From NCBI GenBank assembly GCA_037974665.1, contig CM075782.1:48221351-48285350 (forward strand): a DNA stretch of 64,000 nt. Direction: 5' to 3'. The notes beneath the pieces are model-generated. The model was not told the DNA's origin. It searched no databases and was given only the letters and a program-made list of their open reading frames with translations. Shown piece by piece: positions 7,457 through 7,690 of this stretch (its first letter is position 1; every line of letters begins with the position of its first letter). The DNA is from Ehretia macrophylla (Eukaryota; Streptophyta; Magnoliopsida; Boraginales; Ehretiaceae). Made by a program: the position numbers and the translations under genes.

Positions 7457-7690
7457 TCGCAGATCCCAAAAACGCATAGTTTTTCCTCCAAAAATAACTT
7501 ATCCGGTCGGGGAACGCATTAGATATTTACCTAAACTAGTAGGTCCTTGAGCGGATCCCACGTTAGCCCCAAGGCGTTGGTCTCTAACTAGAAAAGTAAA
7601 TGCTTGAGCTTGAGAAGCTTCTGGTCCAGTGGGTCCGTAAAACTCACTAGGATAAGCGGTATTATTGAACCAGACAAAACAGCAAGCAAT
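7457..7690 (-). pseudogene. psbC: Nuclear copy of chloroplast psbC (photosystem II CP43), fragment
   Basis: Read on the minus strand from 7690, the frame gives [19 protein letters not shown], then [20 protein letters not shown], then [12 protein letters not shown] and, after a stop, VIFGGKTMRFWDLR. This is the conserved interior of CP43, the chlorophyll-binding core antenna protein of photosystem II encoded in the plastid, about 78 of roughly 470 residues. Against the usual protein a Glu codon after SPTG has become TAA and a later Glu has become Lys, so it is dead. It stops abruptly at 7690, where the T-rich tandem repeat begins, and near 7457, where poly(T)-rich sequence begins. It lies wholly inside the Harbinger element 6358-8526. 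Identification rests on recognising the protein. Confidence 0.9.

What the first reader, a model, noticed from the sequence alone, without database searches (positions are those of the whole stretch)
7457..7690. Chloroplast psbC fragment carried inside a Harbinger-type element
A 234 bp piece of plastid psbC (CP43) lies within an element that has inverted ends, a TAA target duplication and an empty paralogous site. Capture of organelle DNA by a non-autonomous transposon, or insertion of a nuclear plastid fragment into an existing element, would let organelle sequence be spread by transposition. The fragment has one stop and a Glu-to-Lys change, so it is not recent but still easy to recognise.
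Basis: partly seen in the sequence, partly recalled or inferred. Interest (0 to 1): 0.7.

Follow-up and report, generated by a model that had tools for sequence, protein, structure and literature searches.

The report
Chloroplast gene scrap inside plant transposon
A 233-base broken piece of the chloroplast gene psbC sits inside a small plant transposon that cannot move by itself; it looks like ordinary DNA-repair filler, and no second copy of this transposon carrying the piece turned up among the matches scored in a search of the plant's genome.

Summary
Window 7458-7690 (minus strand) is decayed plastid psbC: 75 of 78 residues match plant CP43. It lies in a 2,169-bp element (6358-8526) with TAA duplications, imperfect inverted ends and an empty paralogous site. 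A second element with the same kind of ends, at 533-1070, has empty sites and no psbC, so the ends are real.

The spread-by-transposition idea is not supported here. The genome search answered once: 40 of 132 candidates were scored. Only the window copy is psbC inside this element. Seven other loci read (L083-L089) hold no element sequence; L083-L086 are longer plastid inserts. The other 32 rows match only a 147-base part; all 18 fetched lie in a repeated segment that, where scanned, carries mitochondrial genes.

Best reading: plastid DNA was joined into a break in an existing element, with 0-1 bp shared at the junctions, at the tip of a palindrome that a sister repeat unit keeps whole. Whether the element carried psbC when it landed is unknown: 20 searches for element copies did not complete. 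New member of known kinds; modest interest.

The parts
6358..8526 (.). Non-autonomous, PIF/Harbinger-like element, 2,169 bp
   Evidence: Exactly this stretch plus one TAA is missing from the paralogous site 11503-12025
6355..6357 (.). Target-site duplication TAA, left
8527..8529 (.). Target-site duplication TAA, right
6358..6371 (+). Left terminal inverted repeat, 14 bp
   Evidence: 10 of 14 identical to the right end; 16 of 24 over 24 bases
8513..8526 (-). Right terminal inverted repeat, 14 bp
   Evidence: resembles the right end of 533-1070
7458..7690 (-). psbC (CP43) fragment, 233 bp, with Gly to Ser, Glu to stop, Glu to Lys
7691..7875 (.). Internal repeat unit A, beginning at the psbC edge
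   Evidence: 89.9% to unit B over 188 columns; 15 of 207 aligned bases differ
7926..8113 (.). Internal repeat unit B, without psbC
8083..8287 (.). Internal repeat unit C, 68% to 7720-7952, without psbC
7910..7938 (.). Palindrome with 13-bp arms and 3-bp loop at the A/B boundary; intact counterpart of the psbC insertion site
   Evidence: longest of 5 such four-letter palindromes (arm 9 or more, loop 6 or less) in the window; its right arm recurs exactly at 7691-7703
8248..8267 (.). Related palindrome with 9-bp arms in unit C
7410..7449 (.). Run of 40 T just left of psbC
11503..12025 (.). Paralogous empty site
533..1070 (.). Second element with the same kind of ends, 538 bp, TAA duplications at 530-532 and 1071-1073, empty sites near 28957 and 55336

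Best explanation
A fragment of plastid DNA entered the nucleus and was joined by end joining into a double-strand break inside an already existing non-autonomous PIF/Harbinger-like element. The break was at or beside the tip of a palindrome that separates the element's internal repeat units; about a dozen bases of one arm were lost and 233 bp of psbC filled the gap. The piece has since decayed without function. Shown: psbC identity, element with duplications and empty site, the junction bases, the intact palindrome in a sister unit, no second psbC-bearing copy of the element among the scored matches. Inferred: break at the palindrome, end joining, and the order of events. Not known: whether this happened before or after the element landed at this site.
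For: The right psbC edge lies exactly where the loop meets the right arm in the intact palindrome of unit B, and the 13-bp right arm is present next to psbC. In L084, L088 and L089 sequence beyond the psbC edges continues as plastid psbC, while the window switches abruptly; 0 bp are shared at the left junction and 1 bp at the right. No target duplication flanks psbC itself. psbC differs from the host's nuclear plastid majority at 4 of 228 sites, against 14.1 expected from half the divergence of the empty-site flanks (P 0.0017) and 8.3 from the repeat units (P 0.086). psbC is seen in this element only at the window locus among 40 scored matches, and element sequence was absent from the 35 other host loci fetched.
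Against: The T-rich, repetitive interior makes the left border weak: the left flank resembles the unit end only by a T-run plus GTGT, and such a motif occurs three times in the element. The first unit of an array need not have had a left palindrome arm, so psbC could have stood at the array edge before it expanded. The age comparison with the repeat units is not significant (P 0.086) and assumes equal rates. Two of the three coding changes recur in other nuclear copies, so they may be hot spots. 92 of 132 candidates of the genome search were not scored. Copies of the element without psbC were not seen, because that search did not complete.
Confidence: 0.7

Rival explanations
1. Pack-type capture: the element picked up psbC from a nuclear plastid insert through its own mobilisation, and transposed with it as cargo.
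For: Pack-TYPE elements exist in the Harbinger-PIF superfamily in rice and maize (PMC8903248, passages). The element is non-autonomous and carries foreign DNA between intact ends. The host genome has several psbC-bearing nuclear plastid inserts.
Against: No second psbC-bearing copy of the element among the 40 scored of 132 candidates. psbC lies inside the repeat array, at a palindrome tip, without other flanking nuclear sequence. The second element at 533-1070 has no psbC.
Confidence: 0.13
2. psbC was there first and the repeat array expanded next to it, starting at the psbC border, so units B and C never held or lost psbC.
For: Unit A begins exactly at the psbC edge. The left palindrome arm of unit A is not visible and may never have existed.
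Against: It needs an expansion boundary that coincides with the psbC border and a palindrome centre by chance. psbC looks younger than the A/B split, though not significantly (P 0.086).
Confidence: 0.14
3. psbC came by way of mitochondrial DNA: a plastid insert in the mitochondrial genome that then reached the nucleus.
For: 32 of 40 scored matches hit only a 147-base part of psbC; all 18 fetched belong to one repeated segment, and ORFs from four of the loci covering it match mitochondrial-type ATP synthase alpha or rps3-rpl16.
Against: The window piece is longer at both ends (7458-7690 against 7468-7614) and lacks four bases shared by 16 to 18 of the 18 copies.
Confidence: 0.03

Closest known systems
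Nuclear plastid DNA (NUPT) inserted by end joining
   Same: Short, decayed plastid piece; joined with 0-1 bp shared, within the range given for such inserts (blunt, or 1-7 bp; PMC7037861 passages). Co-localisation of such pieces with transposable elements is already described there and in PMC12572781 (passages).
   Different: Here the target is the inside of a small non-autonomous DNA transposon, at a palindrome tip.
Non-autonomous PIF/Harbinger-like elements, such as the MtPH families of Medicago truncatula (PMC2213677, passages)
   Same: TAA duplications, short inverted ends beginning GG, no transposase found, internal tandem repeats, nested insertions and paralogous empty sites are all reported there.
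   Different: The ends lack the G(N)5GTT motif those authors required; the nested DNA here is organellar.
Pack-TYPE transposons (PMC8903248, passages)
   Same: Foreign DNA between the inverted ends of a non-autonomous element.
   Different: Defined there by captured coding DNA that moves and duplicates with the element; no duplication was seen here. The words chloroplast, plastid and organell* do not occur in that paper's main text.
rps15 plastid insert of papaya, amplified about 23 times near Ty3-gypsy elements (as told in PMC7037861, passages)
   Same: Plastid DNA beside a mobile element in a nuclear genome.
   Different: There the copies multiplied; here a single copy was seen.

Membership tests
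Nuclear plastid DNA insert (NUPT) | Plastid-derived sequence in nuclear DNA | tested here: met
   psbC identity; window lies in a 64-Mb contig of a 1.58-Gb assembly beside nuclear genes
Nuclear plastid DNA insert (NUPT) | Junctions with little or no homology | tested here: met
   0 bp left, 1 bp right
Nuclear plastid DNA insert (NUPT) | Match to the species' own plastid genome | not testable with these tools
   Species unnamed and its plastome not available; proxy: 4 of 228 differences to the majority of six nuclear inserts
PIF/Harbinger superfamily | 3-bp TAA or TTA target duplication | tested here: met
   TAA both sides, one TAA in the empty site; the same for 533-1070
PIF/Harbinger superfamily | Short terminal inverted repeats | tested here: met
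   10 of 14, the limit of four mismatches used in PMC2213677
PIF/Harbinger superfamily | G(N)5GTT motif at the 5' end of the inverted repeat, as required in PMC2213677 | tested here: not met
   Ends read GGCTATTCTC and GGGGAACCTC, so I call the element Harbinger-like, not a proven member
PIF/Harbinger superfamily | DDE transposase and Myb-like protein (autonomous copies) | tested here: not met
   22 of 22 stop-to-stop ORFs of 40 aa or more scanned against Pfam: only the PSII family passes its cut-off; eight weak sub-threshold matches, none a transposase. Expected for a non-autonomous copy
PIF/Harbinger superfamily | A mobilising autonomous partner with the same ends | not tested
   Searches of the host genome with element sequence did not complete (20 requests)
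Pack-TYPE transposon | Captured DNA moved or duplicated with the element | tested here: inconclusive
   No second psbC-bearing copy among 40 scored of 132 candidates; cut-and-paste movement of one copy is not excluded

The most novel reading that the evidence does not exclude
In this genome psbC really has been spread, though not by this element: as a passenger in a mitochondrial segment that became a dispersed nuclear repeat. All 18 fetched copies (of 32 scored rows) share the same psbC junctions and long stretches about 91% alike, on many chromosomes, so a plastid piece would have travelled plastid to mitochondrion to nucleus and then multiplied there. Separately, the palindrome tip inside the window element may be a recurrent site for organelle DNA.
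Probability: 0.4. Interest if true: 0.5.

Novelty: new member of a known kind. Interest (0 to 1): 0.3.

Why it matters
It is a clean, datable example of organelle DNA nested in a mobile element, with empty sites for the element and an internal uninterrupted counterpart for the psbC insertion. It shows that nesting alone does not mean spreading. The genome search it prompted revealed a much larger case: a mitochondrial segment with a plastid insert, repeated in the nucleus.

Tried and rejected
Plastid reference: 20-base psbC patterns found nothing in viral contigs or genome contigs; a protein-based search of viral contigs found no relative; genome contigs gave L002. Rfam found nothing in the window. 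The plasmid collection held only a cyanobacterial psbC.

Rejected: a 5- to 7-bp shared AGATC/CAGATCC word as microhomology at the left junction, because plastid-like copies show the break lies outside it. Rejected: Tc1/mariner (TA duplication), because the ends are symmetric only with TAA. Rejected: mitochondrial route for the window piece. Also rejected: that the 32 partial matches are a psbC-bearing retrotransposon, my first guess; the ORFs turned out mitochondrial.

Literature on plastid DNA captured by DNA transposons: ten counted searches; from the listings and passages seen I found no report of psbC inside a Harbinger-type element. That is not proof of absence. Papers were seen as passages only; 54 and 55 gave nothing useful.

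Errors of mine: one search crashed after printing the A/B divergence, and the rest was redone; the background overlapped the element itself and was redone. In some searches I scanned all 22 ORFs only after the first report attempt.

Full report
What is there. The window is plant nuclear DNA: chlorophyllase genes and copia-type retroelement pieces, placed at C19:48221351-48285350 of a 1.58-Gb, 20-contig assembly.

The psbC piece. Read on the minus strand, 7458-7690 matches plant CP43 chains at E 3e-49, with 75 of 78 residues identical and one of the three differences a stop. The DNA matches L002 at 91.8% over 233 bases with 19 mismatches; L003 reaches 83.0% and L005 78.2%. L002 is filed under a Clostridia bin but has an overlapping psbD-psbC pair like a plant plastid; I infer plastid contamination. 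In one search, 20 codons differ from L002; the last one is the junction base 7457. Of the 19 inside the piece, 16 are synonymous and 3 change the protein: Gly to Ser, Glu to stop and Glu to Lys. By the chain numbering the last is position 354; from memory, Glu354 of CP43 binds the manganese cluster, so the piece could not work even if joined up. Against the majority of six nuclear plastid inserts of the same genome, the piece differs at only 4 of 228 sites, the three coding changes and 7496. The Glu-to-Lys change is shared with L085, and it and the Gly-to-Ser change recur in some copies of the mitochondrial family, so these are probably recurrent changes rather than markers of descent.

The element. 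Self-comparison shows 5896-6357 matching 11503-11956 and the match resuming at 8543-8592 with 11976-12025. TAA stands on both sides and once in the empty site. The ends agree at 10 of 14 and 16 of 24 positions; 68 of 200,000 random TAA-flanked pairs do as well. A scan of the window for TAA/TTA-flanked pairs with GG ends gave 3 pairs at 10 of 14 or better; the best is 533-1070 and another is the element itself. The ends of 533-1070 resemble those of 6358-8526: the left score 57 was reached by 0 of 5,000 background windows and the right score 47 by 1 of 5,000. It also has empty paralogous sites near 28957 and 55336, and it lacks psbC and the repeat array. No transposase was found: of 22 ORFs of 40 aa or more, only the one holding psbC passes a Pfam cut-off.

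The insertion point. Right of psbC lies repeat unit A, 89.9% like unit B. At the start of B stands a palindrome with 13-bp arms and a 3-bp loop, the longest of the five such palindromes found in 64 kb. Unit A has the exact right arm immediately after psbC, so psbC sits where the loop and left arm would be. Unit C has a similar 9-bp-arm palindrome. In host copies where psbC continues (L084, L088, L089), the plastid sequence runs on past both edges, while the window switches at 7457/7458 and 7690/7691, with 0 and 1 bp shared. There is no duplication of target bases around psbC. This is what end joining of a plastid fragment into a break would leave; PMC7037861 (passages) gives blunt or 1-7 bp joins for such inserts. 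That the break arose at the palindrome is inference, and the coincidence was noticed after the fact.

Order of events. Halving the A/B divergence (15 of 207) predicts 8.3 changes in 228 bases; 4 are seen (P 0.086). Halving the divergence of the left flank from the empty site (55 of 445) predicts 14.1 (P 0.0017). So psbC looks younger than the flank duplication and perhaps than the array; both sums assume one clock and the first is not significant. The paralogous site could also be empty through precise excision.

Was psbC spread by this element? The psbC search of the host genome scored 40 of 132 candidates. Only the window locus is identical. L083-L086 are near full length at 92-95% and sit in longer plastid stretches; L087-L089 are partial. 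None of these seven contains element sequence outside psbC. The other 32 rows match only about 7468-7614 at 89-92%. I fetched 18 of the 32; all share the same psbC junctions and long flanks about 91% alike. Four queries (three parts of the element and the 533-1070 element) found nothing in the 35 other host loci, 259,013 bases without N. A psbC-bearing element copy should have matched over the full 233 bases and ranked above the partial rows, so I take this as good, not complete, evidence that there is no second one. Searches for copies of the element itself did not complete (20 requests), so copies without psbC were not examined.

The 32 partial matches. Their shared segment extends more than 12 kb on one side in the pair L105/L116 and L104/L117. 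Ten ORFs from these loci were scanned: six carry ATP synthase alpha/beta domains or rps3-rpl16, four nothing. One of them matches mitochondrial ATP synthase alpha at 1e-124, against 4e-94 for the chloroplast subunit. I read this as mitochondrial DNA with a plastid insert, repeated in the nucleus. Whether it multiplied in the nucleus or came over many times is open. The window piece is not from it: it is longer and lacks four family bases.

Verdict. Both ingredients are known kinds, and nesting of plastid DNA near or in transposable elements has been described. Interest 0.3.

Noticed in passing
L090-L107 and flanks L108-L117 (host genome; rows): A dispersed nuclear segment carrying mitochondrial-type atp1 and rps3-rpl16 and a 147-base psbC insert with constant junctions; 32 scored rows, 18 fetched, about 91% alike. 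Looks like a multiplied mitochondrial segment holding a plastid insert.
   Followed up: partly
window 533-1070: A second, 538-bp element with the same kind of ends and TAA duplications, with empty sites near 28957 and 55336; both elements are followed by TAAAAGGC.
   Followed up: yes
window 25424-31684 and 51789-58063; 32249-36565 and 59683-64000: Large duplications (96% and 99%) including a chlorophyllase gene pair at 27067-27930 and 53443-54384.
   Followed up: no
window 7910-7938 and 8248-8267: Sister palindromes in units B and C differ by a matched change in both arms (C to T and G to A), so both stay perfectly palindromic.
   Followed up: no
L103 after position 6532 of the oriented locus: An unrelated sequence interrupts the mitochondrial-type segment in this copy, where other copies continue.
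   Followed up: no
L002 (CAMUZI010000007.1): A plant-plastid-like contig filed under a Clostridia metagenome bin.
   Followed up: partly
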